Shown piece by piece: positions 20,139-46,925 of a DNA stretch of 64,000 nucleotides. Numbering within the stretch: the stretch's first letter is position 1; each line of letters starts with the position of its first letter. Below the pieces are notes generated by a model that saw only the letters and a list, made by a program, of their open reading frames with translations, was not told the DNA's origin and ran no database searches. Origin of the DNA: Cliona cf. orientalis (Eukaryota; Porifera; Demospongiae; Clionaida; Clionaidae); the NCBI GenBank assembly GCA_963930775.1, contig OZ005689.1, positions 15,624,923 to 15,688,922 on the forward strand. Direction: 5' to 3'. Position numbers and translations under genes: made by a program.

Positions 20139-22233
20139 GGTATGCTACGATTGTCAGCTAGATGATTTGATTTTGTACCTATAATGAGGAATTTGGTATA
20201 TTGACCATTGATCCCACGTTTTCACTTGGTGATTTTGATGTCACAGTCATTACCTACCGGCACTTGCTACTGCACTCAAAACGAACTGGCAAACCTCCAG
20301 TATTTGTAGGCCGACCGGTTCTCATTGATTATCGCAAAACCTTTGCTACTTACCTCCACTTTTTGACGACGATCATCAGTTTACGTCGAGAGCTAGCCAA
20401 TATACAATGTTTTGGCACTGATGGAGAGATTGCGTTAATTGATGCTTGCAAACAAGCTTTTACACTAGGCGTAAGCTTGATATGTTCCATCCACGTACGA
20501 CGAAACATCAGTGCAAAGATGCATGAACTGAGGATAAGTGAAGGTACAAAGAAGATGATTTTGGATGATCATATCTTTGGGCATTCTGTGGGATCTCATC
20601 ATACAGAGTGTCTTGTTGATGCTGTCAATGAAAGCATGTTCAACAGTCTTTTCGAGGTGATGTCAAGTAAATGGAATATGCTGGACTTATCTGAAGAAGG
20701 TCCTATGCATACCTTCACACGCTGGTTCAAGCGTTACAAATGTGCTACAATAGTAAATAGGTTATTGCGGCCTGTTCGAGAGCAAGCAGGGCTAGGGTGC
20801 CCCCCAGAACTCTTCACTACCAATGCCAGCGAAAGTGTTAATGCACTATTGAAAAACAAAGTTGATTATAAGCATAATGAACTTCCTGATTTTTTGAAAA
20901 AGCTCAAGGAAGTCATCGATGAGCAAGATGAGGAAGTATCAAGGGCTGTAATTGGAAAAGGCAAATATGAGATTCAGCCTGGATTCAAGCAATTAGAAAA
21001 AAGTGAAGCAGAGTGGTTTTCAATGCGGGAAGAGGCCAGGAAGCAACACCTTCGTAAAGTAGCACTGACTCAAGTATGGGATATAAACATGGATGAAATT
21101 GAAGCATTAGCTAGCCAACAAGAGCCAGCAATATCAGCTCCTGCAGGGTCCCAGTCAAGTGTCAACAACTGCTGGAAAAGGTGCTTGTCGCCGATTATTT
21201 GACTGTGACAGTAAATCTGAGCTCTCAATCAGAGTTGACTCGTTTGCTGATCTTGTGACTCTCCCACGCTCTGTTCTAGATGGAATTTGGGAGAAAGCAT
21301 TTGAATTAGCCACAGATCCCAATGCCATAGCATCTGCACCAGGTTATGACAAAGGTCATGCAGTGAAAAGCTCCTCCAGCAAGCGACCACACCTTGTAAT
21401 GTCAAAAATAAAGGGCAGTATATTGCTGTGACAGTGATTGTGGAAACTACAAATCTCTTAGTATTTGCTCTCATAGTGTTGCAGCTGCCGAGATTGACGG
21501 CGAGCTGAAAGCATTTATTGACTGGTTTGTGAAGGCCAAAAAGCGTCCAAATATAACAAATTTAGTGTTGACTGGGATGCCGAGTTGAAGAGGACGTAAG
21601 GGTGGGGCTCCACCAAGAAAGAAGAAGAAATCTGTAACAGCAATATCCCGAACTCCAGCCTCCTCACTTTAATTTGACCAGCACGAGCACGAGTATCATT
21701 GCCAGTTCTAGCACCACTGCCAGTACTGTTGCCATTGCTTTCCCTTGTACAACTACTAACACCAGTATTAGTAATACTGGGATGGCTGCCTCTGTATGCG
21801 TAGGAGCATCCTCTTCTGAATCATCTTCAATGACTGTAGGTGTTCCACAACAAGATTGTATTCCCACATATCCACCCCCGCTTGTGCATTATTCTCCATC
21901 CTCCACTGAGTCGGACAGTCTTTTTGAATTGTGCTTTGTGACAGGAAACATAAAAGTGTGTCGAGGATGCCGACAGAGATATGAAAACCCCCTAACTCCA
22001 CCGATGGATCTATGCATCCGACACAAGGAGTGGCAGGAGTTTGTACCCACAGGAAGTGCATCCACGCAAGTGAGATTTGGAAACATTAATTTTACTACCA
22101 TGTCAATATTCCATGCATTCTTACAAGGTGTCCATACTTCACTCCTGATATGCTAGTAATTCCTCCTGGTATTGCAATGCAATTGCTCCCTACTCACACA
22201 GAACTTATTACACAACGCATGCATCGCTACTAA
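20139..22233 (+). pseudogene. MULE-like transposase, catalytic and C-terminal part
   Basis: This continues the gene begun at 6282 after the nested insertions. Motifs: DDLI then (shifted) YNEEFGILTIDPTF with the first Asp, CFGTDGE with the second Asp, CSIHVRRN (the C(2)H motif typical of MULE transposases) and TNASESVNALLK with the likely Glu. Downstream frames are broken near 21200, 21430 and 21590. The C-terminal Zn-binding stretch (VCRGCRQRYE...MDLCIRHKEW) and the final PYFTPDMLVIPPG to MHRY-stop (22231-22233) are still recognisable, with a further shift near 22130. Inactive. Confidence 0.8.
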
Positions 22234-27704: not shown

Positions 27705-30700
27705 TGTCAGCCAGCGTTCTTCTAGACAAGAACTGCTAGGACAATCAGCCTCTTCAAATCAAACTGACAAAAACTTTGACCTGGATTTTTTCTTCAAGCT
27801 ATGTACGTACAATACTGGTACTGCTATAATCATATCTAATACTAATTACATGTTTATTACAGGGAAATGGCTAGATGTTTGGAATTGCTGCTACTTCTGT
27901 GTTTCTCATTCACTCATGCTGCTCCTGATCTAGTATTTGATGATTCAGAGGATGGTGACCAACAAGGAATGCCTCAGTTTGCATCTCAATTGGCTCTAGC
28001 TCTCTCCTCAGACTCCTGGGAAGATGATCTTAAATCCGAAGAGGATCTAGCTTTTGAAGAGGATGAAGAAATTGATGAAGGGATGGACGATGAGAATATG
28101 CAGGTTACATCGGAGTCAAATGAAGAATTCATCAATTTGAAGGCATTAATCGCAGAAATTAAATACCTCAATGAATTAGACAAGCCTGTGAAAAAAGATT
28201 GCAATAGAGGAGAGGGAATTTACAAAATCCAGAGTGAATTTTATGGAGGCTACAATGACAGACGCTGGAACTTTGAATGCAGAAAGGTCGTCCAAAACAA
28301 TGCCCAATTAGTTACATGCACTCAGATAAAATCATACGAGAATGATTTCAATGGAACAATTGTGTTCTCATGCGGTGAAAACCAATACATTGCGGGAGTT
28401 GAAAGTTATCATGACAACAGCAAAGGAGATCGTAGGTGGAAGTTTACTTGCTGCTCTGCTTGGAATTACAAGACTAGCGACTGCCAACTCTCTGAAAATG
28501 CTAATAGGCTTGGCCAAATGATGGATTTTCAAGCTGGAGATGATGAAATCATAGCAGGTGTAGACAGTCCAACATATAGCACTAAGTTGAGGTAGCTATA
28601 ATCATTATGAACTTAACTTTAGTAATCACTGTATATTCCTTATCAAAATTAACAGGGACAGGATATGGAAATACAAGGTTTGCAAGTACAAGCCTGTGAT
28701 TCAGAAGAAAGATTGCAATAAAGGAGAGGGAATTTACAAAATCCAGAGTGAATTTCGTGGAGGCTACAATGACAGACGCTGGAACTTTGAATGCAGAAAG
28801 GTCGTCCAAAACAATGCCCAATTAGTTACATGCACTCAGATAAAATCATACGAGAATGATTTCAATGGAACAATTGTGTTCTCATGCGGTGAAAACCAAT
28901 ACATTGCGGGAGTTGAGAGTTATCATGACAACAGCAAAGGAGATCGTAGGTGGAAGTTTACTTGCTGCTCTGCTTGGAATTACAAGACTAGCGACTGCCA
29001 ACTCTCTGAAAATGCTAATAGGCTTGGCCAAATGATGGATTTTCAAGCTGGAGATGATGAAATCATAGCAGGTGTAGACAGTCCAACATATAGCACTAAG
29101 TTGAGGTAGCTATAATCATTATGAACTTAACTTTAGTAATCACTGTTACAGTATATTCCTTATCAAAATTAACAGGGACAGGATATGGAAATACAAGGTT
29201 TGCAAGTACAAGCCTGTGATTCAGAAGAAAGATTGCAATAAAGGAGAGGGAATTTATAAAATCCAGAGTGAATTTCGTGGAGGCTACAATGACAGACGCT
29301 GGAACTTTGAATGCAGAAAGGTCGTCCAAAACAATGCCCAATTAGTTACATGCACTCAGATAAAATCATACGAGTCTCAGAATGATTTCAATGGACCAAT
29401 TGTGTTCTCATGCGGTGAAAACCAATACATTGCGGGAGTTGAGAGTTATCATGACAACAGCAAAGGAGATCGTAGGTGGAAGTTTACTTGCTGCTCTGCT
29501 TGGAATTACAAGACTAGCGACTGCCAACTCTCTGAAAATGCTAATAGGCTTGGCAAAATGATGGATTTTCAAGCTGGAGATGATGAAATCATAGCAGGTG
29601 TAGACAGTCCAACATATAGCGCTAAGTTGAGGTAGCTATAATCATTATGAGCTTAATTTTAGTAATCACTGTATATTCCTTATCAAAATTAACAGGGACA
29701 GGATATGGAAATACAAGGTTTGCAAGTACAAGCCTGTGATTCAGAAGAAAGATTGCAATAAAGGAGAGGGAATTTACAAAATCCAGAGTGAATTTCGTGG
29801 AGGCTACAATGACAGACGCTGGAACTTTGAATGCAGAAAGGTTGTCCAAAATAATGCCCAAGTTACATGCACTCAGATAAAATCATACGAGAATGATTTC
29901 AATGGAACAATTGTGTTCTCATGCGGTGAAAACCAATACATTGCGGGAGTTGAAAGTTATCATGACAACAGCAAAGGAGATCGTAGGTGGAAGTTTACTT
30001 GCTGCTCTGCTTGGAATTACAAGACTAGCGACTGCCAACTCTCTGAAAATGCTAATAGGCTTGGCCAAATGATGGATTTTCAAGCTGGAGATGATGAAAT
30101 CATAGCAGGTGTAGACAGTCCAACATATAGCACTAAGTTGAGGTAGCTATAATCATTATGAACTTAACTTTAGTAATCACTGTATATTCCTTATCAAAAT
30201 TAACAGGGACAGGATATGGAAATACAAGGTTTGCAAGTACAAGCCTGTGATTCAGAAGAAAGATTGCAATAAAGGAGAGGGAATTTATAAAATCCAGAGT
30301 GAATTTCGTGGAGGCTACAATGACAGACGCTGGAACTTTGAATGCAGAAAGGTCGTCCAAAACAATGCCCAATTAGTTACATGCACTCAGATAAAATCAT
30401 ACGAGTCTCAGAATGATTTCAATGGAACAATTGTGTTCTCATGCGGTGAAAACCAATACATTGCGGGAGTTGAGAGTTATCATGACAACAGCAAAGGAGA
30501 TCGTAGGTGGAAGTTTACTTGCTGCTCTGCTTGGAATTACAAGACTAGCGACTGCCAACTCTCTGAAAATGCTAATAGGCTTGGCCAAATGATGGATTTT
30601 CAAGCTGGAGATGATGAAATCATAGCAGGTGTAGACAGTCCAACATATAGCACTAAGTTGAGGTAGCCATAATCATTATGAACTTAACTTTAGTAATCAC

Positions 30701-31928
30701 TGTTACAGTATATTCCTTATCAAAATTAACAGGGACAGGATATGGAAATACAAGGTTTGCAAGTACAAGCCTGTGATTCAGAAGAAAGATTGCAATAAAG
30801 GAGAGGGAATTTACAAAATCCAGAGTGAATTTCGTGGAGGCTACAATGACAGACGCTGGAACTTTGAATGCAGAAAGGTTGTCCAAAATAATGCCCAAGT
30901 TACATGCACTCAGATAAAATCATATGAGAATGATTTCAATGGACCAATTGAGTTCTCATGTGATGAAAACCAATACATTGCGGGAGTTGAGAGTTATCAT
31001 GACAACAGCAAAGGAGATCGTAGGTGGAAGTTTACTTGCTGCTCTGCTTTGAATTACAAGACTAGCGACTGTCAACTCTCTGAAAATGCTAATAGGCTTG
31101 GCCAAGTGATGGATTTTCAAGCTGGAGATGATGAAATCATAACAGGCGTAGACAGTCCAACATATAGCACTAAGTTGAGGTAGCTATAATCATTAATTAA
31201 TTATGAGTTTAATTTTAGTAATCACTGTATATTCCTTATCAAAATTAACAGGGACAGGATATGGAAATACAAGGTTTGCAAGTACACTGTCAAGTCTGCA
31301 CCAATTCAATTTGCTCCTCCACTTGGGCTTGATGATATATGTGAGTTTGTACACAATAGCTATGTACCCATGTTTTCAAACACATGGCAACGCTTAATAT
31401 GGTACAATACTCGTGCATATTATTTTGTCAAAGAAATGTTATAAGCTAATTTATCACCCTCTTACAGACATCAGGACTTTCACTCTGTCACTGAGTAAAA
31501 GTAGAAATTTGCAACTCAAAACCCAGGATGGTGTGACTGCTATCATACCTTTAAAGAGTGGATGGTCCTCCCTCACATCGAAAAACAATATTCTAGCCTA
31601 TCGTCCAAGATATTCTGATGTCCACAGAAGTGGTGTTGCAGGAATATTTGTTAACATTGAGAAAGTATTCCCATGCATTGCGGGTACTAACTATGTTCCA
31701 ATTTGCAGCATATTTACGAGTGAAGAAGATGGATTTAGGAAGGGAAAGCAATACATTGAGCTTGGTGACCTGGGCAACGCTGTTCGAGTGTTTGGTAAAA
31801 ACATCGCAACATACGGATTAGCTATTAGAGGCTGCCCTAGACTATACGGAGCTTGGGGATGTTTTCCACGTTATGTCACCAGTACAGTTGTATGTTTACT
31901 ACCTCGATCATCCTGCCAAACCGAGTAA
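27705..31928 (+). CDS. Secreted protein with six dermatopontin modules and a novel C-terminal domain
   Basis: Exons: about 27705-27802 (non-coding), 27863-28591 (ATG 27867), 28656-29105, 29176-29631, 29696-30142, 30207-30662, 30733-31179, 31252-31340 and 31468-31928. All introns are GT-AG. The coding total is 3531 nt, exactly 1177 codons with the stop, which strongly supports the model. Order: signal peptide (MARCLELLLLLCFSFTHA), an acidic stretch (about residues 24-86, SEEDLAFEEDEEIDEG), six dermatopontin domains each with three D-R-x-W motifs (DRRWNFEC, DRRWKFTCC, DRIWKYKVC), then a roughly 150-residue Cys-bearing domain (FTSEEDGF, ELGDLGN, YGLAIRGCP). Dermatopontins bind matrix components, and sponges carry many. 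The C-terminal domain is shared with 40239-41113 and 46054-46925 and is not one I can name. Modules end within exons, so each intron lies near the end of a module. Confidence 0.92.
28196..31251 (+). repeat. Tandem array of about 520-bp exon-plus-intron units
   Basis: Six dermatopontin units and their 64-71-bp introns repeat almost without change. Variants: ESQNDFNG (two extra codons) in units ending at 29631 and 30662, loss of the Leu codon in NAQVTC in units ending at 30142 and 31179, and an extra GTTACA in introns 29106-29175 and 30663-30732. The alternation points to duplication of multi-unit blocks followed by little divergence. Confidence 0.9.
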
Positions 31929-32338
31929 TATACCCTCATACAGTGATCAATTATGAATCATCAAACTTAATAATTTAGAGACTCAAGTAGTGTTTGAGCA
32001 TGCAGATAGCTATAATATTATAGGATTTAACTTTAGGTGCACAAAGTAGCTACAGGTGCACATTATAAACTGTTGAAATTTTATTAGAAACAATAGTCTA
32101 GGATTGAGTAAAATAATATGATTATGCTGCATTCAGTACCAGTTATTTTGTAGTTTTGTACTGAACTTGATTATTTTTTTATTGCGTGACAAAATTTTGC
32201 AGTTTTCTACACACGCATGGGCATATTATATGCAGTAAAGCCAATAAATTACTAAATTTTTATAATACATGGTATCATTATAATTGAATAAACTTGAAGG
32301 ATGAAGTAGGGATGGCAGGATCAAAAAGTATACACAAA
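31929..32338. other. 3' flank of the dermatopontin gene
   Basis: No gene. AATAAA-like signals occur near 32244 (CCAATAAATTAC) and 32286 (TTGAATAAACTTG) and could serve as poly(A) signals. Confidence 0.4.
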
Positions 32339-32594
32339 CAAGATTTGTAAGGGATAATCGCATCTACTATACATCCCTACGCTTAATTATTGCTTTTCTT
32401 TATTATTATGTACCTATTAATGTCAACATACTTGTCGAGTGAAGTATATATGTGGAAGACATTCAGGTTATTCCTAGTTGTCACGATGGTGGGATGGTCA
32501 GTTGATTCAATCACATGCATTATTACTGGTTATTTTTGCATCCCTCAACTTGAAATAGATGTATAGTAGATGCGATTATCCCTTACAAATCTTG
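32339..32594. mobile_element. 256-bp MITE with perfect 36-bp TIRs
   Basis: The first 36 bases (CAAGATTTGTAAGGGATAAT ... ACATC region to ATACAT) recur exactly inverted at 32559-32594. A diverged relative is at about 23430-23725. Flanking GGATGAAGTAGGGATGGCAG (about 32300) is also shared with that relative, so the full family unit probably starts further out. Perfect TIRs suggest recent activity. Confidence 0.8.
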
Positions 32595-33090
32595 GAGTGG
32601 ATTTATATACTCAAACTAAGATGAGCGATTAAGGCAGTCTTGAGCTAGCTCTGATAATGAAAAAGAAGGAAAGAAAGAAAGAAGAAAGAAGGTCATGTAG
32701 AAATTAGTGTAAAAAGAGCATAAGACCCTAGAGTTACTCATGGGAAGATTTTAAACCATCACAGCCTGGAGTTACTCATGGGAGGATTTTAAACCAGCAC
32801 AACCTTGAGTTACTCTAGGGAGTGTTTTAAACCATGGATGTTTATCTAAAATCCTCAGGTTTAAAAATAATTATCATTACTTATATAAGGGAGGATTTTA
32901 CACCACTTCAAAATTGTAGGGTCTCATTCGTGCAATTTTCTACCCCATAGTATAACATATTTCATATATATATGGCACGATTTTAAACCACTTGCAGCAA
33001 CCCAACATGATCTGGTTTAACAGCTCTCATGAGGGATCAAGTAAGTTGGCAGTCACAGTAGCAGACCGTTTGACTGTGTACTGTGACAAT
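32595..33090. repeat. GAAA-type microsatellite and GGATTTTAAACCA minisatellite
   Basis: A purine-rich GAAAGAAAGAAAGAAG run (about 32660-32690) is followed by three or four copies of a roughly 55-bp unit with GAGTTACTCATGGGA and GATTTTAAACCA (32735-32835) and further degenerate copies to about 32985. No gene seen. Confidence 0.7.
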
Positions 33091-33395
33091 AGTTAGGCTG
33101 TGGGCATATGCCCATAGCCCACCTAGGGGGGTCTGGGGGCATGCTTCCCGGAAAATTTTGGAAATTTTAACACTCTGAGAGCGTTTCTGATGCATTCTGG
33201 CAGCAGTTTTTGGACTGATTTAGTAGCTATTTCTATTCGAGCTCTCTTTTGCAAACACCCAGAACTTTTTTGCTGTAATTTTATAGTATGTGCATGTGAT
33301 AAAATGGTGGGGCTCAGCCCCCCTTGTTTCCAAAGTGGGGGGGGGTGAAGCTCCCCCTGCCCCCCCCCCTATTTCTCCGCCCCTGCTAACTTTAT
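33091..33395. mobile_element. Probable MITE, GC-rich ends
   Basis: The segment begins TTAGGCTGTGGGC and ends CTCCGCCCCTGCTAAC, giving a weak inverted match, with G/C runs inside (GGGGCTCAGCCCC). It sits just before the first readable helicase exon and may account for the loss of the helicase N-terminus. Borders uncertain. Confidence 0.4.
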
Positions 33396-33411
33396 ACTAT
33401 ATTATGTAGGT

Positions 33412-34528
33412 CAATAATCTATCTGCTAGAGGATTGGCTACAGCTTACGTAAATGCAGATTCTAGTAACAAGAGTATGCAGGATGGAGTTATCAAGGGAG
33501 AGTATCAACTAGTTTACATAAGTCCTGAATTGCTCATGGTGAACCTTAAATGGAGAGAAATGCTGAGATCAACAATTTACCAGACTAAACTTAAAGCTTT
33601 CATTGTCGATGAAGCACACTGTGTTACTAAGTGGTAAGTAAATGATCTGTACTATAACTTAGAACAATTTTATTCCCATGATCTGTTGCAGGGGTGAATA
33701 CTTTCGGCAAGAATTTTCCAATCTTGGACAAGTTCGTAGTCTTATCCCCTCAACAGTTAACATAATGGCACTCAGAGCTACGGCCACAAAAACGACAAGG
33801 AACAAAATTATTGCCATTCTTGGTATGTTATCGCCAAAGGTTGTTTCTGTGTCTCCAGAAAAATCAAACATAACTTATTGGGTGCGTCAGAAGAGTTGTG
33901 TTGAAGAGGTATTCACTCCCATAGCCGACAAACTCAAGCACAAACGAGCAAATATGCCAAGAGTGATCATATTCTGTAAGAGGTGTGAAGAATGTGCTAT
34001 GCTTTATCAGTTCTTTCTGCCTAACTTAGAAGAAGAGTTTACAGAGCCTGTTGGAGCACCCAATCTCTCTCGATTCAGGCTTGTAGACATGTATATGAGT
34101 GCTACTGATGAGAGTGTAAAACGCACTATTGTGGAGTCCTTTTGTAAGGTGGACTGTCCCTTACGAGTCATTATATGTACAATCGCATTTGGGATGGGGA
34201 TAGACTGCCCTGATATGAGGCAGGTGGTCCACTGGCATGGGGGGTCTCCGACAACATTGAAATGTATATGCAGGAGAGTGGACGGGGTGGGCGTGACGGA
34301 ATGTCAGCATGTGCTCTTCTATACTACAAAAAGTCAGATTTGGATTCACGAAGGACAACACAGGCTATGATTGACTACTGTAAGAACACAAGTGTATGTA
34401 GAAGATCACTATTGTTGAAGCACTTCGATTTCAATGCGCATTCAGCTCATGGTTGTTCGTGTTGTGACGTATGTTCTAACTATCCTAGCTGTAGTGACTG
34501 TTCGTGTAATTCTTTCCCCTTGCTGTAG
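33412..34528 (+). pseudogene. RecQ-like superfamily 2 helicase, truncated
   Basis: Two main exons (about 33412-33632 and 33691-34528). Helicase motifs: VYISPE (Ib/Ic region), IVDEAHCVTKWG (motif II, DEAH), LRATAT (III), VIIFCKRCE (IV), IICTIAFGMGIDCPDMR (V), ESGRGGRDG (VI), then a Cys-rich CSCCDVCSNY end. Walker A (motif I) and everything before it are missing. A frameshift from a small insertion near 34237 separates motif V from motif VI. Such RecQ-like proteins are frequent in sponge and cnidarian mobile DNA (recalled). It lies tail to tail with the DUF6589 gene, 118 bp away. Confidence 0.8.
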
Positions 34529-35783
34529 TATTGTAAATATCCTTCACTGCAAAACAAAAATATTACATAAAAATGTTGAATGAAAGCATGACATTAATCA
34601 TTGTAATGAAAAAATAATAGGCATTGAATTAATATTCATACAAGGGTTATTTGTTAAAGTTAGTGGCAAGATGTAGTTTCTTAAAGTTATCTGTCATCCA
34701 GGTGTTAAATTTTGTTTTGTTGATAGATCGGAACACATTTGAACGTAATGATTTAAAAGAGTGGTGCTTTCTGTTCGGGATACAGTCAAATACCTTGCTT
34801 TTGAGTAATTCTTCAATTACCATCTTCAAATCACCTGAGTCAGATCTTCTGGTATGTTCACCTGAAAGGTAGGTGACCCCAGTGACCTTATCAAAATTGC
34901 TCAATGTATTCGAAATGACGCCCACCACCTTTCCAATTCTGACAATAGCACCAGGAGTTTTGTTGGCGCCAAGATGGGCTACTGCATCCTTACAAACTCT
35001 GTTTAAATGTTCCATATGGAGGTCACCAGACACATTTCTACCACAAGAGCCATGTGTATTCACAAAGCGACTCCATATCAATTGCTCGGCATATCGAGGT
35101 GGCAGTAAGTAATAGTAGTGACATAGCAAGTTAAATGATTCCAATGCATAATTTGTATGACCTGTTGCTCGAAAAAAAAAGAAACATAAATTTCCAACAC
35201 CGAAGATCCCTCTCTCCAGCACCTAACCTGATCAAATCCTTAAACTCCAACAGGAACAAGCCCATCGTAAGAACTTCTTTACCATACTCGTGTATATGAT
35301 CCATCGATTGTGAGCGTTTCTTTGTTTCTACTGGGAAGCTCAAATCCACAAACGACGATAATATTTTTTTTACTGCTGCTTTCAAGATCATTGCTGGGTT
35401 GTCTGTGTCAGATGGGAGCAACATTTCATCTGGTTTATCATCAATTTTGCTCATTCCGAATATTTTCATAGCAGCAACTATAATGTGTGCTGTTGTTACC
35501 AGTTCAAACAAATCCTCACAGGAATTCATATCGTTTTTGGGGTCGCAAACAACATTCCTTCGTATAATTCGGTTGATCAGATTTCGAAGTTGATAGAGAG
35601 TACCTCCTTGACTTGAGCTAGTCTTGTACAGCCTGGTCCATACAACCTTGTTTGTAAAACAGATAATACAAAACATTAATTACTGATACTAGTAAATGAA
35701 ATTCTTATAATGATGTAGCACATACATACTATTATAGGATTGAATGACATCATTGTAAACATTAGCTACACATAATATTATTA

Positions 35784-36093
35784 CATAGGCGGCGGAAGGA
35801 AGTTCTATTTGGGGGGGCAGATAACCATTCATTGCGCGCAAAGCGCGCGCGAAAATTTTGGACCACGCCCACTTAATTGAAGTTTAAAGGTCACTCGTGG
35901 ATTGTGATGGTGCTATTACTGTCTAGAAGAAAGAAACGATGGAAAATTGGCACAATGATCGACTTTTGAGGCTATTCTAGGCAGCTTTCATGAAAAGAGA
36001 TAAGTCTGGCTGATTTGTGACCTCATTAGGCCCTGGATTTTGGGGGGGGGGGGGGCAACTGCCCCCCCTGCCCCCCCGGTTCCGCCGCCTATG
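35784..36093. mobile_element. MITE with CATAGGCGGCGGAA ends
   Basis: CATAGGCGGCGGAA at the left is mirrored by TTCCGCCGCCTATG at the right, 310 bp in all, with a long G run and its C counterpart next to the right end. It lies in an intron (or split exon) of the DUF6589 gene. Confidence 0.85.
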
Positions 36094-38716
36094 TATTATT
36101 TTGCCTACCTTCAAATAGCACATCTTCGTATGCCAGTCTTCCACTACTGGAATGAACCCACCAAGACAACTGCGACCATTTTCTGAGTTGTTTCGAACAC
36201 TTTGAGCACCACGGATCCTGGCCACTGTTAGTTGATCACCACCCAGGAGAATGTGATGAAAATGATCAACTTGAACTGAAACGTGTTCAATACCAGTAAC
36301 TTCATCCCCATGAGGTACGTCAAATTCTTGAGTTGTCCGTTTTGTGGGTACATACTTATGTATGGAATCGAGGATTTCCACCATCTCATTTATAACTGTT
36401 TCATTCTTGAGAATAACACCCAATGGAATCTACATAATATTTATAATAAAATTATAATTATCTAGCATCGGTGATAATAGATAAAACTCACCACATTTGA
36501 CTTTTTGGACATCTCCTTTGAATACTTGTGTTGGATAACCTTTGGAACAACTGGAGCATACTTAGAGAAGTGCGGTAAATGTTCCACTAGTATTTTCGAT
36601 ATTAAATAACAAAGTTGTCGGTAATTGCTTCGTAATCTTCTGCTAGGGGCAAAAATTTGCTAAAATCAATCTCATCTGGGTCAATAATTCTACTTTCGTT
36701 GGACAAATGGCTGAGATCTACTCGATCTTGAACTGCATACATATTGAAGTAATGCAAAGATTGGCTTTGATGGTCTACCCTCATGTCCCTAGGCTTTATT
36801 GTTTTATCTATGTTATCACCAATCAGTTTGTAACATAGATATGGCTTACATATGGTGTTATGCTCTGGGGATAGGCTAACACCTTCACACGTGGGACAAA
36901 GTTGATCGGTGGAGAAGCTCATTTGGTCTTGTGAGTGGCCAAGTGCTTCGTCATGTGATATCATGCTTATCTCTTGGGAAGATCTCTCCTCTTGCAATGT
37001 GTGTCCTCTTTCTGGGGTCGAGCTCCTTATGATATCACAAGCTTCCATTTGCTCGTGTGCACTGCTCTTGGCATGCAGGAGATGATGTACTATAATTACT
37101 CAGAAAGGAAATGTCTGGGGCAGTGGGACTGAAAGGGATGATAGGACTGGGAGGAAGAGGATCATCACTAATAATTGTACTGCAATCACTGAATGGGATT
37201 GATTCTCGTATGGTGACTGGCTGATCATCTTGATCATCGAACACATGGTTAAATATTTCATCAAAACTCTCTGAGTCAGAAAATTGAAGGGAAAGGTCGT
37301 TTTCAATCATCAAAGATGACTTTGTTGCGGCAGTAATTCCCTGTATGCATAATTATTATCGTTAATTTGATTAATACAGAGAGAGGGCACTACATGGATT
37401 TCCTCTTTGACCGGAATCTCTCCTCCCCATAAACGAAAATTGCCAAGTAGCTATACGTACTATTAACGTAGTGTCCTGGGCAAGCACCATTAATGTACTG
37501 TATGCATTTCAATGTATACAAATGTATCCCGTGGGGTAGGCGCCCATTTCGAGTTATGTTTAACCATGTACCCATGGGGGATGCTAAGGTATTAAGTTTA
37601 TTGTAGAACGATAAATAATGCAATACGTATTAATTTTGTCTATATGTGGTCTCAGAAGCCATCATTACCTGAGATGTGGACACAAATGGTAGTAGATTGT
37701 CCCTCCATTCTAATACTTGTTCATCATGCTTTAGTCCTAGTTGGTCAATTGCACGCAGCGTACCAGAGTTTGAAAGGCAAATCCCATTTTTTGCAACCTG
37801 GCAAATAGCTACACATAAGAATTATAGCATATGCATAAATTACACACACCTAATGATACACACTGCATGTGTCAGTGACTACTGTGGGTAGGAGGGAGGG
37901 ACCTACAGTAGAGTGCTAAGTAAACAGCAACCTTACACATGTGTACACTGCAATACAGTCACACATGCACACACTCAAACATACATCAAAGTACAATAAT
38001 ATTACTATAACTATGCACATGTAGACTACTGTACTGACATATACATGACTATACTTTTATAGTACAATATTATAATTATGGCTATAATATAATTCTGCAT
38101 GCACCTCATCAGATACTAATAAAAAGCTGTTTTATAAGCTATTATCCGCATTACCCAAACCAATAATTTGTGGATAGATGTAATGGATTATGTATGCATG
38201 CACCATCGAACATGCAGACAATGTCATACCTGTTTGCTAGAATGTCCAGCATAAAGTATAGCTGATATAATATGCTGGATTAAACAGGCAGATGGGCGGC
38301 AAGCTTTTGCCAATATAGATGCACAAATTCCAATGACTACTTGGTCATCAAGATTGGAATGTGCAGAAATGCTCGATTTGAGAACAGAATGAAGAATTGG
38401 AGCTTTACATTGGATGACAGCATCAAGTGCGTTCCATGTGAAGTTGCATAATTTATCCTTCCCTTTATCCAACAAAAAGGAATCGGAGCATAACTGCTTC
38501 ATTTCATCTTTTACATATTTCTTTAAACCAGAAATTATGAAGCGGCGGACTGTCTCGTTACTCAATGCATGCTTAGCAAATGACTGATGAGATCTCCTTC
38601 CGAGTGTCTTACCCATAGCTTGTCTGGATGGTGTTAATAAGTATGACCTCTGATGAGAAGGATTATTGACAGTAACCTATTAATTAAATTAGAATGGTGG
38701 AAATGCATGCATATTA

Positions 38717-39231
38717 ACAGACTGTCCAACCTACTCAGCATGACTAAGTGGGACATTTTTTAATTTAATTACCGGTGTGCGCAATAACTAATTTACAAGT
38801 GTATTACAGTGTCGTAATCACAAGCATGAATCATGATAATGATGTATTGATGTTTGCCTCACTGATTTCAATACATTTGTGCTGCCCATGCCCAAGAGTA
38901 ACTACATAATATGATCATCTATCAGTGCCGCTATGTGTACAGTATTTTTAGCTACTGATCATGAATCCTGACCACGTAGATAAAAAACTGAAAATTTGGG
39001 GATTTAGTACATACATCACATATTATGGAGCTCTGTAAAATTTAATAGCATGCAAAATGCTAAAAAATGGAAATGTTTATATTAAATGACAGGAGAACAG
39101 CACTATGGTAAGTTGTTTCACAGACTAAATGTGGGACAAATGGTGTCCCAAGTAAGGGTAGTGTGGGACGTGGGACAATTTGTCCGAAAGAGGGACTGTC
39201 CCACTCAAAGTGGGACGGTTGGACAGTCTGT
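38717..39231. mobile_element. MITE with ACAGACTGTCCAAC ends, 4-bp TSD
   Basis: ACAGACTGTCCAAC and GTTGGACAGTCTGT bound 515 bp; ATTA flanks both sides (38713-38716, 39232-39235). Interior GTGGGAC repeats resemble those of the element at 49965-50515. It lies in the first intron of the DUF6589 gene. Confidence 0.8.
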
Positions 39232-39793
39232 ATTAACAATAATGATATTGCTACTATATCAACGAGCATTTACCATTACAGCTCCTTCACTCGTCTCTAC
39301 CCGTGATTTCTTCCTCCGTGGAATTGCTTCTCCACTTGAAGGCCTCTTTGTTGCTCTACTTACTTCACCAACGTGATTGGCACAAACGAATTGTAGTTTG
39401 CCTTTGAGTAGTTCTTCCACATTTGCTAGTTCGCTTTTGAGACGTCCATATCTCTCAGCCAATCGAAAACATTTCGTACAGAGGTACCCAGATCCAAAGT
39501 GCGCTGTAGCCTCAGGAAAATCGATAGACCTTGAGATAGAAAGAAGAGTATTTCTTGAGTCTGCTCCTAAGGTGCGGCGAGAGCTACTGACGGAGACCCC
39601 ATCACCGCAGGCTTTACAGCGCTCCATATCACACGTTGGCTTAGTACTTCTCTTCACTAGGTTCCAGTACAGCTGCAGCGCGCAAGATTGAGACGCTACT
39701 AGTTGGGCGGGACGATTTTCGCGGAGGTCGTCCTGCCCAACTAGTACGCGGCCGGGCGATTTGCGCACCGCGCCCGCGCAGATTATTCTCTAC

Positions 39794-39825
39794 GTCACGT
39801 CACGTCACGTTCTGAACGTGACGTT
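39794..39825. promoter_or_regulatory. Cluster of TGACGT/ACGTCA sites
   Basis: ACGTCACGTCACGTCACGTT followed by CTGAACGTGACGTTTCG gives four to five CRE-like cores in 40 bp, about 170 bp upstream of the DUF6589 start on the minus strand. It could be a promoter or a transposase-binding array of the element's end. Confidence 0.45.
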
Positions 39826-39867
39826 TCGAATGTTATGCAATCGTGGATCCAAACGGGTATAGGCAGT

Positions 39868-39938
39868 GGGCCAGACCCTCCTCCCCCCGCGTGTTTATCC
39901 TGAAAGAACTAAACGCTGCGGAGTGTGAGGGTCTGGCT
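39868..39938. repeat. Short hairpin GCCAGACCCTC/GAGGGTCTGGC
   Basis: GGCCAGACCCTC is mirrored by GAGGGTCTGGCTT 45 bp later. It sits exactly between the helicase/DUF6589 element and the start of the segmental duplication, so it may mark an element end. Confidence 0.5.
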
Positions 39939-40238
39939 TGCGAGACTAGTCAGAAATGAGCAAATACCTTGACCCAGAGTAGCTATATACTAGATATATA
40001 TAGAATCATTGATAATTTTTCAGTTTTATCACAATGTCTATCATCATGCATTCAAATTAGGAAACTGCACAATGCAAGCTTACACAATCATGTAGCTAGT
40101 TGTATTGCAACCATGTATATACTCTAATCAACCTATGTATTGATCAAGTTTGACTTAAAGTTAGCATCTAGCTAGACTCATTCTAAATTAACAGTAGTAT
40201 ACATGCATAATATAACATTCAATGTTAGTTTTCTTTCA

Positions 40239-41113
40239 TCAGGGGCATATCGATCGTGGAAGCATGCACATGATTTCATTTTGGTAATACTCCGGCAAGC
40301 ATTCTGGAGTGAGTGTTGGACAGCCAGAAATTGCCAACCCATACAGAATTACTTCTGAACCAAAAACTTCTTTAAGTTCACCATTTCCAGCATCTCCTAG
40401 TTCAATAATTGCCTTTCCACCATTAAATCCATCTTCTTCGCTTGTAAACAACTTGCATGATGGTCCCCTTAAAGTTGAATCATCATGCAGTTTAGCCATG
40501 CATGGAAAGATTCCTTCAACATTGACGAATATTCCAGCAAGGCCACTTTTGTGGCGATCAGCAAATTTTGGGTAATAGGCAAGCAAATTGTCACTTGATA
40601 TGGCACTTTTTGCTGGGTCTTGGATGGATATTTCAGAGGTTGAGTTGGTTGAGAATAGGCGCAGACGTCGTTTGGTTATCATGTGCAGTCTAAGACTAGC
40701 AATGTCTGCAAGGCAAACAGTATACTATCATTATTGCCCTTCATTAAAGACCATGCATGTACACTATAACAGAGGTATTCCTACCATTGCATGCTGTTTA
40801 AAGCAAAATGTGGGAGAAACCCCCGAAAACATGATTGGGACCATTAATGCACATAATATTATTATACATGCATTCTATACATGCACTACTAAAAGGTGAA
40901 AGTTGCAGCTGAATTATAACAGTACAACAGAGAGCATGCAGGCCGCTGCCTAGAGTATCTATAAGTCTCAGAGTAAGAACCCTAATATTATTATTATACT
41001 GGGATCATGATTTCCTTACATGGCTCTATCATCTGTGCGTCAGATGGAGCAAAAGGCACAGAGAGTACCATAGCCATCAATACCATCATTGTTATCTTTA
41101 CAATTGTCTGCAT
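40239..41113 (-). CDS. Small secreted protein with the dermatopontin-gene C-terminal domain, copy 1
   Basis: Two exons on the minus strand, 41020-41113 and 40239-40705 (94 + 467 nt = 187 codons with stop), joined in phase 1 by a 314-bp intron. Exon 1 is a signal peptide (MQTIVKITMMVLMAMVLSVP). Exon 2 is one domain: NLLAYYPKFADRHKSGLAGI, VFVNVEGIFPC-type core, CKLFTSEEDGFNGGK, IELGDAGN, LYGLAISGCP, CLPEYY, MCMLPRSICP. The last exon of the dermatopontin gene (31468-31928) aligns throughout and enters in the same phase after a Tyr codon, so they share an ancestor. The conserved Cys suggest disulfides. Function unknown; an extracellular ligand or matrix role is inference. Confidence 0.85.
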
Positions 41114-41225
41114 TTCGAAGGACGATATACGAATCAAAAGAGTTGAAGAATCCTTGTTTCTCTTCACTTAATCTTTTAGTTGCTTGAGTCAACTGATATA
41201 GTAGAGTGCCAGCTAAATTTATTAC

Positions 41226-41236
41226 TTTTATATACC
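41226..41236 (-). promoter_or_regulatory. TATA box of secreted-protein copy 1
   Basis: On the minus strand GGGTATATAAAAGTAAT stands about 115 bp before the ATG. The matching site of copy 2 (about 47043-47052) reads ATGGTATAAAAGTAAT. Confidence 0.55.
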
Positions 41237-42304
41237 CTTTGGTGTTGGTACGTGATCATCACTGCGGGATCAAGCACTCAACACGTAGCTACCAGCAAAT
41301 CTATCAAAGATGGACTTCTATGGCATCTTGTACAAATGGAACCCAAAATATGGAATTCCAATTTCCATTAAACAGTCAAGAGGAACGCAAGTCGCTACCA
41401 CTGAGATAATTGTTCTGTTCCGGCAAGATGAAGTAGCTCTTGCTACCAATATTATAACTATGGAAGGTTGAGGCCATATTCACGGTAGTCCAGGCAGCTG
41501 TTACAAAAATCTTACAATCAAGAGGAACAAAAATCACGTTCACTGAGCACTTATTCACTTCCATGAAAGGAAGGGATCATGAACTATAATTAGCAAGCCA
41601 AATTAAAATTAATGACACCTTGCCAAACACACTTTTACAGCCACAAATTGAAGGAACCAAAGCTACTACCACTTGCATGCATGAACACTGTCAATTACAG
41701 AAGAGGAATATACAAAATTGTCACCAACATTGAGTCAGACTACCACATAGTATTACATAATATTACTATTCTAATTTGTATACCGATATCTCTATAGGTA
41801 TACCATGTATATGTACTGACGTTCACTATAGTCATTTCTATCATTATTATTTATTATGCATAATAAAATATAATATTATAATTTAGTCTTATGACATTGT
41901 AGTGATGGCTATGGCATTATTTTATACATGCAGGGCTCAGGACATTGGTCAACTCCATCTTGTAGCTATACATGTTTGGTGATACAATGAATAGAGAGAG
42001 TGTATTGGACATCAGAGAGAGCACTAGCTATAGTGTAGCTATACAACATAATATTTTATTATATACAATGCATGTACTGTTCACTGGCAGTATAGTGCAT
42101 GCACTCGCTAATCAGAATGTGTTTACTGTCATGTTATCATCATGATGGTGGATTATGAGGATGCTTGAAAGTGGGGATATAATATAGTTATTCCATCATT
42201 CAGGAAGAACAGAGTAGCTATAAGTGATCTCATCTGGTAGGACACCATATGCATGATTCTATATATATGTGACCCACTGCATTGCAGTGAAGATGTAAAT
42301 GCTC

Positions 42305-42640
42305 ATTAACTGTTACAGTAGCTAGCACTTGTATGCAAGTCCTAAGATTTTTTTCAGGGTCTCAGGACTTGAGTGGGGATCGAACCCACACATTCACATC
42401 TCCGGTGTGATGCTCTACCAATTGAGCTACCAAGCCCTTGGAAGCAAGTTGGTGGGGAGAAAGGGTATAATATTATAAATGCTAGTCACGTAGTGCGCAT
42501 TTTCTTACATAAACGTCACTTATACAACACCCCTGGGTGACAATGCTGCCACCTATGGCATTCGGCTACACGCTGTAGCCATCAAGCCTGACTCATCAAA
42601 AGGATTATTAACTGTAGCACTTGTATACAAGTCCTGAGAT
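42305..42640 (-). repeat. Composite tRNA-derived SINE, reverse orientation
   Basis: On the minus strand the 3' half reads GGGCTTGGTAGCTCAATTGG then TAGAGCA, anticodon-loop GGA, GGGTTCGATCCCCACTCAAG, then the tail ending GACTTGCATACAAGTGCTA. The acceptor and T stems pair fully. The left half (42530-42600) holds CACCCAGGGGTGTTGT and a GGCTACAGCGTGTAGCC stem and is preceded by a second tail at 42605-42640. Organisation matches 3040-3400. Confidence 0.7.
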
Positions 42641-44102
42641 TTTTTTTTTTCACGGCACCATCATGCAGGAAGGACAAAGTAGCTATAAGTGATCTCATCT
42701 GACGGAGCTGAAATCTGCAGCCATGGAACCAAAATAAGACGGCTATAGCTACTGGCTATTACAACAGATTATTGAACGTATCAGTTCATATCTCCTAGTA
42801 GTCTAGATCTAGTACAGGGAGAGTGCTTTTGTCACCGGAACCTCCAGTAGCTATGATAGTGTACAATTAAGCAGCATTTCCACTAATTTTCTGAAGTTCG
42901 CAAAAATGTAGCCATGCACACAAAGTATTTCTATAGATTGCGCAATGTGCGCGCGGAGTACATGTATGTGCTCTACAGAGCTCTAGTTACGATAATTGAA
43001 GCCCTTATTAACCCTCGCCGCAAAGCGTAGGCGGAGAGTTACTGCAATTGTTTGTCCGTCCGTCCATCCATCCATCCATCCGTTTGTCTGTCCGTCTGTT
43101 TGTCCATCCGTCCGTATGGTACAAGAATCGTCTGAGAGAAAGTACGCATCAGGATTACCAGGCATCAAGGAAGAGTGGTTAAGTCCTGCCCAGTGGTAGT
43201 AGTGTGCAGCTGTGGTTGCCATTCTGTGCCTTGCTGGTCAGTTGTCAATGCAGTGACAGTGTAAACAGGCAGTGGCTCTCAAGTGCATAATTCAGTTTAA
43301 GTACTCACAGAGACTTTCAATTAATATAGTGACATAGGCAGGTGCCTTCCCCCTATACGCCTATAGCTATCATGCACTGACTCTGAAGAAAACTGGAGTA
43401 CCTCAGGTGCAGGGTATGTATATGGTAGTATGTATCTAGTTTAATACTCCTGATATTGAGCAGGCATACATACTGAGATATGAGATCTAGCTACATGACA
43501 TTGTGCATGAGTCATGCATGCGTATAGTGGTGAGGATTGTGCACTCCTGTGCATTCATTTGAAATAGCATAAATAGCACTGCTCACTGGTTTGGAAGTTG
43601 AAGTCTATACCTTCATTTAGTTAGTACTACCACTGAGCTACATTTTGAGACTCAAGAACAGCTTCTTGGATGAACAGAAAAGTTTGTAGAGGTAGAGTAT
43701 AAAGTTGACACAGATTTGGTATGCACGTGTGGTTTACGCATATCATTATCTCCTTGACGTACTGTATAGCTACATCATGCAATTCCTGATGGTCCTACCC
43801 ATTTGCTTTGGGGGCTTGGGATTGCTGATCCATCAAAACACACAACATCACAGCGTATTTCGTGCAAAAACATCACGGTTCCACTTGTTGAATTGAACTG
43901 ATTGTTAATCAGAACGAGTTTAATTACGTAGTTTGATAATTGCGTCCTAGTCAATGCGTGCCAAATTGCGAATCCCGATGGACGACCCCGTACTGTACTG
44001 TAGTGTAGTATACCAGCACGTTTATTTTTGCGAATTGCGAAACGTAGAAAAACTCGCAATTCGCAATTAATAGATACTCGCTATTAAAACCCGACCTACG
44101 GT
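42641..44102. other. Intergenic with simple repeat
   Basis: No gene. CCGTCCATCCATCCATCC-type tetranucleotide repeats lie at 43050-43110. From about 43900 TIR-like words built on GCGAATTGCG occur in both directions, probably a degenerate miniature element. Confidence 0.45.
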
Positions 44103-44342
44103 ATGCTCCAGGCATGTCCAGGCACAAGGTTAGCACAGACTAGGGCCAAGAACAGAACTCACACTTTCCATCGACAACAGCAAGCGAGAGCAGCTGCTGA
44201 AGCAAAAGTAAGACTTCCAAGCCACCTCCAAAGAGCTGTGGATGTATCTTCCGAAAAAGGAGCCTCAAGTTGGCTCTCTGTTCTGCCTATTGCAGAGCAA
44301 GGCTTTGCCCTAGCTACAAAAGGGAGCTCTGATCTCGTGTGA
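44103..44342 (+). pseudogene. Retroelement-associated ORF fragment, fossil
   Basis: The stretch SSEKGASSWLSVLPIAEQGF resembles a module recurrent in invertebrate retroelement-type proteins (ASSWL...P...HGF...KGAFRDAL pattern, recalled). Only a short piece remains, so the element is broken and its family cannot be fixed. Confidence 0.4.
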
Positions 44343-45777
44343 AGTTGATTTTGTGAGAATTGAGAATTGATTTCGTGGCGGGGGTTGATCTCATGTGAAT
44401 TGATCTTGTGGGAGCACCCCCACTGCAGACTGCTTCTACATGCTGTGGGTGACACCTCCCTCCCCCCCCCCCCCCACCCAAATCCTAGTAGCCTATAAGC
44501 TATTGGCTATAATTGAGCAGCTGGAGGGTTCTGCACTCCAGTGCTTTAATTGAGACATTGTGCTTGGCCTACAATGTCATGATACTAAGTTACTAGTAAT
44601 CATTCCAAACATTATTACTAATTTAGTATAAGCATGATGAGATAAACAAGTTCAATCCTGCACAAGTACTGGATGGTCCAGCCTGGCTGCTGAGGTTGTT
44701 TGTCACCAATTCAATATTAGTGTGTCCAAAGAATTTCGAAAAGTTCAGAAAACTGGTACAAAGATGCTACCGTAACAGGCATAAAGAGCAACCTTAGAGC
44801 AGCCGAACAATATGTATAATATTGCTGGGGATTTACTCCGTTTTCTACAACCTTTTAATGTTACTCACTAGCTACTGTCTCTCATTTTGCTCCTTGCACA
44901 GTAATACAGACATGGCAACGTACAAACTATGGGCCACCAAGGGTCCCCAGATATCTATAATATCTCAGCCCTGGTTAGAAGTTTAACCACGAAACAAATT
45001 GCACCAGATAGCTCACAGAATGAACTATCAATTGATCCCTTAACCAAGTAATTAAAATTGGTTGCACAGAAGCACCGCTAGCTTCATATTTGTTTGTATT
45101 AAGTTTATATGGAGAAGTGGATTGGATGGGTATATGCCATATTATTGCCTTGCAATGGTTTTATTTACGAATACTGTTAGATAGCACTTGCAAATAGCTC
45201 AAACATTCATGATAGTGGGACTTCAATACTGCTTTAGGTTACTGCTGAACTTGGGGCCTCTGTATATCAACTCTCTTTAGAGCCCAGCAGAGTGCGTTTC
45301 TTTCCACAATACCAACCTATAACTATTTCTAGATTCACTAAATCTGAATGAAATTACCTAAAAAGTATAATAATCCACAAAAAGTAGGCCATCAATGACT
45401 TACAATGATGCATATTATTGAAATTAGCACTAGAAAAAACCACAGTAAGGACCACTAAAAGTTTTGGAGGTAATATATATAGATACTCACAAACCTAGCA
45501 TAAGGCAGAAACTGCAGAAATAAGTGCCAGAAAAATCATGTATATTGATGTTTCTTACTATCAAATCCAGAAAGTACAGCAAAAGAACTGCTGATTGACG
45601 TGCAAAGCATGGAAAACGGTCGAGAATTGGCTTGTGGGTGTGAAAATTTGTAATGTCACTTTATGGTGCGCGTTTAGATAGAGTAGCTATAATGCCAAGC
45701 AACACATTTTTGCGGGTTATAATTATCCTTTGGATAATATATTATGTACAATATTATAATTATAATCCTAGTCAGAA
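44343..45777. other. Intergenic, no gene seen
   Basis: AT-rich apart from a C run at about 44461-44475. No exon or clear mobile element was recognised. Confidence 0.4.
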
Positions 45778-46053
45778 ATGAGCAAACATCTTGACCCAGT
45801 ACTAGATATATAATTATAATAGCATCATTGATAATTTTTCAGTTTCATCACAATGTCTATCATTATGCATTCAAATTAGGAAAATGCACAATGCAAGCTT
45901 ATACAATAATGTAGATGTATTACAACCATGTATATACTATAATCAACCTATGTATTGATCAAGTTTGACTTAAAGTTAGCATCTAGCTAGACTCATTCCA
46001 AATTAACAGTATAATTATACATGTATATAACATTCAATGTTAGTTTTCTTTCA

Positions 46054-46925
46054 TCAGGGGCATATTGATCGTGGAAGCATGCACATGATTTCATTTTGGT
46101 AATACTCCGGCAAACATTCTGGAGTGAGTGTTGGACAGCCAGAAATTGCCAACCCATAGAGCATTACTTTTGAACCAAAAACTTTTTTAAGTTCAAGATT
46201 TCCAACATCTCCTAGTTCAATAATTGCCTTTCCACCATTAAATCCATCTTCTTCGCTTGTAAATAACTTGCATGGTGGTCCCCTTAAACTTGTTTCTTCA
46301 CGCAGTTTAGCCATGCATGGAAAGATTCCTTCAACATTGACGAATATTCCAGCAAGATCACTGTTGTGGCGATCAGCAAATTTTGGGTAATAAGCAAGCA
46401 AATTGTCACTTGATATGGCACTTTCTGCTGGGTCTTGGATGGATATTTCAGAGGTTGAGTTGGCTGAGAATAGGCGCAGACGTCGTTTGGTTATCATGTG
46501 CAGTCTAAGACTAGCAATGTCTGCAAGGCAAACAGTATACTATCATTATTGCGCTTCATTACAGACCATGTACACTAACAGAGGTATTCCTAAAATTGCA
46601 AGCTGTTTATAGCAAAATGTGGGAGAAATCCCCGAAAACATGACTGGGACCATTGGCACATTAGCTAATATTATTAATACATGCATTCTATGCATGCACT
46701 ACTAAAATTAAAGTGAAAGTTACAGCTAAATTACAATACTACAACAGAGAGCATGCAGGCCACTGCTAGAGTATCTATAAGTCTCAGAGTAAGAACCTAA
46801 TATTATTATTATACTATGATCATGATTTCCTTACATGGGTCTATCGTCTGTGCGTCAGATGGAGCAAAAGGTACCGAGAGTACCGTGGCCATCAATACTA
46901 TCGTTATCTTTACAGTTGTCTGCAT
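46054..46925 (-). CDS. Small secreted protein with the dermatopontin-gene C-terminal domain, copy 2
   Basis: Exons 46835-46925 and 46054-46520 (91 + 467 nt = 186 codons with stop). The signal peptide starts MQTTVKITIVLMATVLSVP; the mature domain matches copy 1 with all Cys kept. About 17 residues differ in the 147-residue C-terminal part. They cluster in the loop after GIFPCMAKL (REETS here, HDDST in copy 1) and around the LELKKVFGSK segment. The open frame and splice sites are intact, so both copies look functional. Confidence 0.85.

What the first reader, a model, noticed from the sequence alone, without database searches (positions are those of the whole stretch)
27705..46925. A new extracellular domain shared by a hexa-dermatopontin protein and two small secreted proteins
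The last exon of the dermatopontin gene and the second exons of the genes at 40239 and 46054 align along their whole length. All three keep FTSEEDGF, the I/IELGDxGN strand, YGLAIxGCP and xxCxLPRSxC, and share one intron phase with the same Tyr codon. I cannot match this domain to a named family. Its occurrence both fused to six matrix modules and as free secreted copies in a 20-kb cluster suggests a matrix-anchored form and soluble forms of one recognition domain, as might be used in sponge adhesion or self-recognition (inference).
Basis: partly seen in the sequence, partly recalled or inferred. Interest (0 to 1): 0.85.

Follow-up and report, generated by a model that had tools for sequence, protein, structure and literature searches.

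The report
Unnamed sponge head domain, interchangeable stems
A sponge genome carries about sixty copies of an unnamed six-cysteine extracellular domain, attached by one conserved splice junction to secreted, membrane-anchored or dermatopontin matrix stems, which suggests a sponge family of multivalent binding proteins whose target is still unknown.

Summary
The last exon of the six-module dermatopontin gene and the second exons of the two small secreted genes are full-length homologues (46-48% identity) sharing a phase-1 intron in one Tyr codon. The domain matches no Pfam, NCBIfam or PDB sequence at a meaningful score. Two confident AlphaFold models (pLDDT 87, 89) have no significant Foldseek match in the PDB.

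It is not a three-gene curiosity: I merged the searches to 64 places in this genome, which has a silicatein gene, so a siliceous demosponge. The domain ends the protein in 48 of 48 testable copies. A phase-1 acceptor precedes it in 37 of 38. The N-terminal part varies by subfamily: signal peptide alone; signal peptide with a CxxCxC segment; long secreted helix-like stem; type II membrane anchor; dermatopontin (four genes). The CxxCxC stem is itself shuffled onto two other, unrelated-looking heads.

Best reading: a binding head whose valency and anchoring are set by interchangeable stems. The matrix-plus-soluble idea is supported; self-recognition is not (45 of 47 close paralogue pairs have dN/dS below 1; no polymorphism data). 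Ligand, expression and presence in other animals could not be tested.

The parts
27867..28591 (+). Dermatopontin-fusion gene exon 1: signal peptide, acidic region, first DERM module
28656..29105 (+). Exon 2: end of DERM module 1 and module 2
29176..29631 (+). Exon 3: DERM module 3
29696..30142 (+). Exon 4: DERM module 4
30207..30662 (+). Exon 5: DERM module 5
30733..31179 (+). Exon 6: DERM module 6
31252..31340 (+). Exon 7: end of the last DERM module plus linker; ends with the first base (T) of the split Tyr codon, GTGAGT donor
   Evidence: same exon at L040 and L041
31468..31928 (+). Exon 8: the six-cysteine head domain, phase-1 acceptor, stop
   Evidence: fold model
41020..41113 (-). Free gene 1, exon 1: signal peptide, no Cys stem
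40239..40705 (-). Free gene 1, exon 2: head domain and stop
46835..46925 (-). Free gene 2, exon 1: signal peptide, no Cys stem
46054..46520 (-). Free gene 2, exon 2: head domain and stop

Best explanation
The shared stretch is a compact disulfide-stabilised beta domain of about 150 residues with six near-invariant cysteines. It is the C-terminal head of a large demosponge family. A single phase-1 intron just before the head lets different N-terminal parts be joined to it: a signal peptide alone, a CxxCxC segment with a short helix-like stretch, a long secreted stem, a type II membrane anchor with stalk, or dermatopontin modules. Shown by sequence: the family, the six cysteines, the position at the end of the protein, the intron phase and the swapped stems. 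Inferred: the head binds a ligand (glycan, microbial or matrix surface); the Cys segment and helices multimerise it for avidity; the dermatopontin form is held in the mesohyl matrix, the type II form on the cell surface, and the bare forms, including the two free window genes, are small diffusible versions.
For: Family of 64 merged places. Six cysteines kept in 49 of 49 aligned rows at five positions and 48 of 49 at the sixth. A stop follows within 12 residues of the last Cys in 48 of 48 rows testable. Phase-1 acceptor in 37 of 38 tested. Stems: 21 of 71 hits of the CxxCxC stem query belong to a head copy and others were read by eye; bare signal peptide in 9 read copies; dermatopontin at 4 loci; type II anchor at L107 and L109, with phase-1 GTAAG donors; long secreted stem at L108 and L110. 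The CxxCxC stem also carries two other heads: 7 of 9 readable loci one, 2 of 9 another. Models with pLDDT 86.8 and 88.9, pTM 0.85 and 0.87. Mostly purifying selection: 45 of 47 pairs below 1.
Against: No ligand, expression or localisation data. Splice models are unconfirmed by transcripts. The helical-stem inference is weak: 4 of 16 stems exceed shuffled amphipathicity at p < 0.05. The window genes themselves lack the Cys/helix stem, so multivalency does not extend to the two free copies. One fetched head (L014) had no recognisable stem. dN/dS in the window's own clade is higher (0.60-1.33), which could mean relaxed constraint.
Confidence: 0.5

Rival explanations
1. The head is a structural matrix-assembly module, like the non-collagenous end domains of collagens: it makes head-to-head contacts that build mesohyl or skeletal fibres, and recognises nothing foreign.
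For: Fusion to dermatopontin; the CxxCxC stem is shared with heads that I recall being annotated 'short-chain collagen C4-like'; passages of PMC7747718 and PMC7971027 describe dermatopontin as a matrix-assembly and adhesion protein.
Against: Type II membrane-anchored versions and about 64 copies are more than a fibre needs; the head shows no profile similarity to the C4-like heads (hhalign probability 0.1%); no collagen repeat was noticed in the stems read.
Confidence: 0.25
2. The family is a set of secreted and membrane-tethered signalling ligands built like TNF or C1q/TNF-related proteins: type II anchor or secreted stem plus a multimerising head read by a receptor.
For: The type II anchor, stalk and C-terminal head at L107 and L109 have the TNF layout; secreted relatives exist.
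Against: No TNF or C1q match in Pfam for 36 members at E <= 1, no Foldseek match to those folds in the listed hits; six conserved cysteines are not a TNF feature (recalled).
Confidence: 0.13
3. The domain is part of sponge adhesion or self-recognition, a matrix-anchored form and soluble forms of one allorecognition domain.
For: Multi-copy, clustered, extracellular, partly fused to an adhesion-type matrix module; the window's clade has the highest dN/dS (0.60-1.33); Calx-beta genes lie 21 kb before the window start and about 5.5 kb after one C2 copy, seen post hoc.
Against: 45 of 47 pairs below dN/dS 1 and the two exceptions rest on few changes; the C2 Calx-beta gene reads as a membrane protein with a cytoplasmic tail, not a secreted aggregation factor; no polymorphism data.
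Confidence: 0.07

Closest known systems
Dermatopontin (DERM, PF14704)
   Same: The N-terminal six modules of the 27867 gene are DERM; three other fusion genes carry one DERM match each.
   Different: The C-terminal head and the two small genes are not DERM: no Pfam DERM hit in any of 36 heads at E <= 1.
Short-chain collagen C4-like proteins (name recalled; P18503 Ephydatia muelleri seen as an accession in a passage of PMC11906918)
   Same: Same type of secreted N-terminal stem, SCxxCNCxxNNVxxL, at other loci of this genome.
   Different: The C-terminal head is a different sequence family; profile comparison shows none of the similarity expected of homologues.
C1q/TNF, collectin and fibrinogen-like proteins (recalled)
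   Same: Layout: N-terminal Cys, stalk or membrane anchor, then one C-terminal globular beta or mixed head used in multiple copies.
   Different: No sequence match in Pfam or PDB and no significant fold match.
Sponge aggregation factors (Wreath, Calx-beta, VWD; recalled from Grice et al. 2017, not held)
   Same: Extracellular sponge gene family with clustered copies.
   Different: No Calx-beta or other Pfam domain in the heads; the Wreath sequence could not be obtained, so that comparison is open.

Membership tests
DERM (PF14704) | Score over Pfam cut-off for the six repeats of the 27867 gene | tested here: met
   751 bits against 28.3, six stretches
DERM (PF14704) | Head domain itself scores as DERM | tested here: not met
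   no DERM hit in 36 heads at E <= 1
Known Pfam, NCBIfam or PDB family | Significant profile match of the head | tested here: not met
   Pfam best E 0.024, below cut-off; NCBIfam best 0.019 among 49; PDB profile search best E 1.6 with 36 rows and no hit up to E 10 with 49 rows
Known fold in the PDB | Significant Foldseek match | tested here: inconclusive
C1q/TNF-like proteins | C1q or TNF head | tested here: not met
   no such Pfam hit in 36 heads
C1q/TNF-like proteins | Stem or anchor plus C-terminal head layout | tested here: met
   gene models
Sponge aggregation factor | Wreath domain | not testable with these tools
   paper and sequence not held
Sponge aggregation factor | Calx-beta or VWD domains in the same protein | tested here: not met
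   window fusion protein shows only DERM as a family with stretches of its own; heads show none
Short-chain collagen C4-like | Homologous C-terminal head | tested here: not met
   hhalign probability 0.1%, E 0.52
Multivalent lectin-like binding protein | Ligand binding | not testable with these tools
   needs protein

The most novel reading that the evidence does not exclude
A sponge-lineage recognition system built on a protein fold not represented in the PDB: a six-cysteine head in about sixty versions, deployed on matrix (dermatopontin), secreted Cys-linked, long secreted and type II membrane stems through one conserved splice junction, as a sponge counterpart of the C1q/TNF/lectin repertoires of other animals.
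Probability: 0.3. Interest if true: 0.78.

Novelty: new variant of a known kind. Interest (0 to 1): 0.52.

Why it matters
A domain with dozens of copies, six near-invariant cysteines, no listed family and no significant PDB fold match, attached to five kinds of stem, is a concrete and testable candidate for such work. The conserved phase-1 junction and the stem that also carries other heads give a clean example of exon shuffling in an early animal lineage. If the head binds glycans or microbes, the swap of stems would show how one recognition unit is placed in matrix, on cells and in solution.

Tried and rejected
Pfam and PDB searches with three sequences and then with 36 and 49 sequences: only chance-level hits. 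Foldseek on two models against PDB and one against viral models: nothing significant (best E 0.20, 0.092 for the viral set). Viral and prokaryotic contig scans: 31 and 29 stretches matched a short pattern, no relative; these say nothing about other animals. Idea that the head is a degenerate copy of the C4-like heads: rejected by hhalign. Idea that the cluster belongs to an aggregation-factor locus: Calx-beta genes lie nearby at two places, but the one at C2 reads as a membrane protein, and the list was capped (150 of 973 candidates scored), so I make no statistical claim. Hydrophobic-moment test of stems: 4 of 16 significant, so 'coiled coil' is only an inference. Counts: one search gave 70 rows and one search gave 72; I merged them by hand to 64 places, joining split fragments and leaving out the weak partial rows at C2:8482732, C2:8541873, C2:8578391 and C9:8646873. 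Of 54 distinct frames read I dropped four short, broken or very divergent ones (L077, L087, L091, L092) and later L031 (in-frame stop). One search reported 23 head copies next to a stem hit; one search shows two of these borrow a neighbour's stem, so 21. Copies L015 and L023 appear frame-broken in the stem exon and L021 has lost the acceptor AG and one Cys, so some of the 64 are pseudogenes. Literature searches found no paper on this domain in the open-licence library; subscription papers were not covered.
Full report
What was checked. The dermatopontin gene runs 27867-31928 on the plus strand in eight exons and encodes 1176 residues with six DERM modules. The modules are near copies of each other (translations), so the hexamer looks like a recent tandem expansion; three other fusion genes in the genome have one DERM match each. 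The two small genes are on the minus strand, each with a signal-peptide exon and a domain exon separated by a 314-base intron. The three domain exons align along their whole length, 46-48% identical between fused and free forms and 91% between the free forms. The fused and free exons find each other in the whole genome at E around 1e-34.

What the genome adds. The window lies in a 217-Mb assembly. Searches with the fused and the free domain gave 70 and 72 rows, merged by hand to 64 places on many contigs, often in clusters (C2, C4, C9, C10, C3, C1). Of 49 distinct heads aligned, five of the six cysteines are kept in 49 of 49 and the sixth in 48 of 49; the exception, L021, also has a mutated splice acceptor and is probably decaying. 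A stop codon follows within 12 residues of the last Cys in 48 of 48 rows where the DNA reached that far. In 37 of 38 copies tested, AG sits two bases before the first full codon of the exon, so the intron is phase 1.

Stems. I read the upstream exon or had a stem hit for 41 of the 64 places, and 40 could be assigned; L014 could not. Twenty-three have a signal peptide followed by a CxxCxC-type segment and a helix-like stretch; 16 of these were read (L015 and L023 appear frame-broken there; L027 and L029 have divergent Cys spacing) and seven rest on the stem search alone. Nine have a signal peptide joined directly to the head: the two free window genes, L026, L032, L034, L035, L036, L062 and L067. 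Four are dermatopontin fusions: the window gene and L040, L041, L042; L041 and L042 lie on different contigs and are 99.0% identical over 3.4 kb. Two, L108 and L110, have a signal peptide and a long stem; the donor was found for L108, not by the script for L110. Two, L107 and L109, have a long hydrophilic N-terminus, a strongly hydrophobic segment (mean hydropathy 2.77 and 2.76 over 19 residues) and a stalk, that is a type II membrane layout, with in-phase GTAAG donors. In the family tree the window's fused and free heads fall with the signal-peptide-only heads in a 14-row clade (support 98/96), apart from the Cys-stem heads (midpoint root, for drawing only).

The stem is itself a shuffled module. 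A 34-residue stem query found 71 places, only 21 of which belong to a recognised head of this family. Of ten stretches fetched to see what follows elsewhere, nine were readable (L096 was too short): seven have a different Cys-rich head, GVTYTRWG...CPPYE...CVVCTK, that I recall being called short-chain collagen C4-like, and two have a third head. None of the four of these heads scanned matched a Pfam family above cut-off. Profile comparison finds no relation between the C4-like heads and the present one.

What the head is. No Pfam family scored above cut-off for any of 36 heads (best E 0.024), no NCBIfam model for 49 (best 0.019), and no PDB chain by sequence. AlphaFold gives a mainly beta model with mean pLDDT 86.8 for the dermatopontin exon and 88.9 for the L017 head. 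Foldseek finds no PDB match with E below 0.001; the best are 0.61 and 0.20 with TM-scores near 0.3; the viral library's best is 0.092. That fits a fold absent from the PDB but does not prove it, because Foldseek can miss small beta proteins, the slower aligner was unavailable and I could not inspect coordinates. No relatives were found in viral or prokaryotic contigs. Other animals could not be searched.

Selection. In 45 of 47 close paralogue pairs dN/dS is below 1. The window's free pair gives 0.78 from 6 synonymous and 16 non-synonymous changes; the dermatopontin heads give 0.68, 0.75 and 1.33; a second C4 subgroup gives 0.60-1.24. The other clusters give 0.06-0.69. The family is under constraint, and the window's clade evolves faster. 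These are counting estimates on few sites.

How it probably works. One binding head is placed in several settings by its stem: matrix through dermatopontin, cell surface through a type II anchor, Cys-linked or long-stemmed secreted forms, and small diffusible forms. The stems' Cys clusters suggest covalent oligomers; the coiled-coil idea is weaker, since 4 of 16 stems exceed shuffled amphipathicity at p < 0.05. Passages of papers describe dermatopontin as a matrix and adhesion protein found from sponges to humans (PMC7747718; PMC7971027; PMC5793068). The ligand is unknown. A purely structural role in matrix is the strongest rival, given the dermatopontin fusion and the stem shared with C4-like heads. 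A TNF-like ligand role is possible from the type II layout. The self-recognition idea has no direct support.

Novelty. The head is an unnamed domain family. Its way of being used, one head on many stems, is a known kind of design, so I call it a new variant of a known kind. Ten literature searches found no description in the open-licence library; that does not exclude a subscription paper or an automatic database name.

Noticed in passing
L093-L100 (C11 8.29 Mb, C11 8.30 Mb, C5 5.41 Mb, C4 4.14 and 4.17 Mb, C16 1.86 Mb, C18 3.31 Mb): The same SCxxCNCxxNN secreted stem precedes a different Cys-rich head (GVTYTRWG...CPPYE...CVVCTK), recalled as short-chain collagen C4-like, in 7 of 9 readable loci.
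   Followed up: partly
L101, L102 (C9 8.57-8.59 Mb): A third head (…DNMWFPMP…HAIGY) with the same stem, close to head clusters on C9; no Pfam hit for the one scanned (L101).
   Followed up: partly
L041 (C1, 1.1 kb before the window start) and L042 (C3): Two single-module dermatopontin fusion genes on different contigs, 99.0% identical over 3.4 kb: a very recent duplication or an assembly effect.
   Followed up: partly
C1:15601618-15603744 (about 21 kb before the window) and C2:8704314-8706070: Calx-beta genes next to head clusters; the C2 one reads as a membrane protein with a cytoplasmic tail.
   Followed up: partly
window 33663-34528 (+) and 34647-35679 (-): Helicase_C and RecQ zinc-binding frames beside DUF6589 frames, possibly a mobile element between the fused and the free genes.
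   Followed up: partly
window 4086-5560 (-), 9919-11025 (+), 20171-21202 (+): Long frames that look like transposon proteins (recombinase/reverse-transcriptase-like, Pogo-like and MULE-like by eye).
   Followed up: no
L021 (C2:8479472): A head copy that has lost both the splice acceptor AG and one of the six cysteines: probably decaying.
   Followed up: yes
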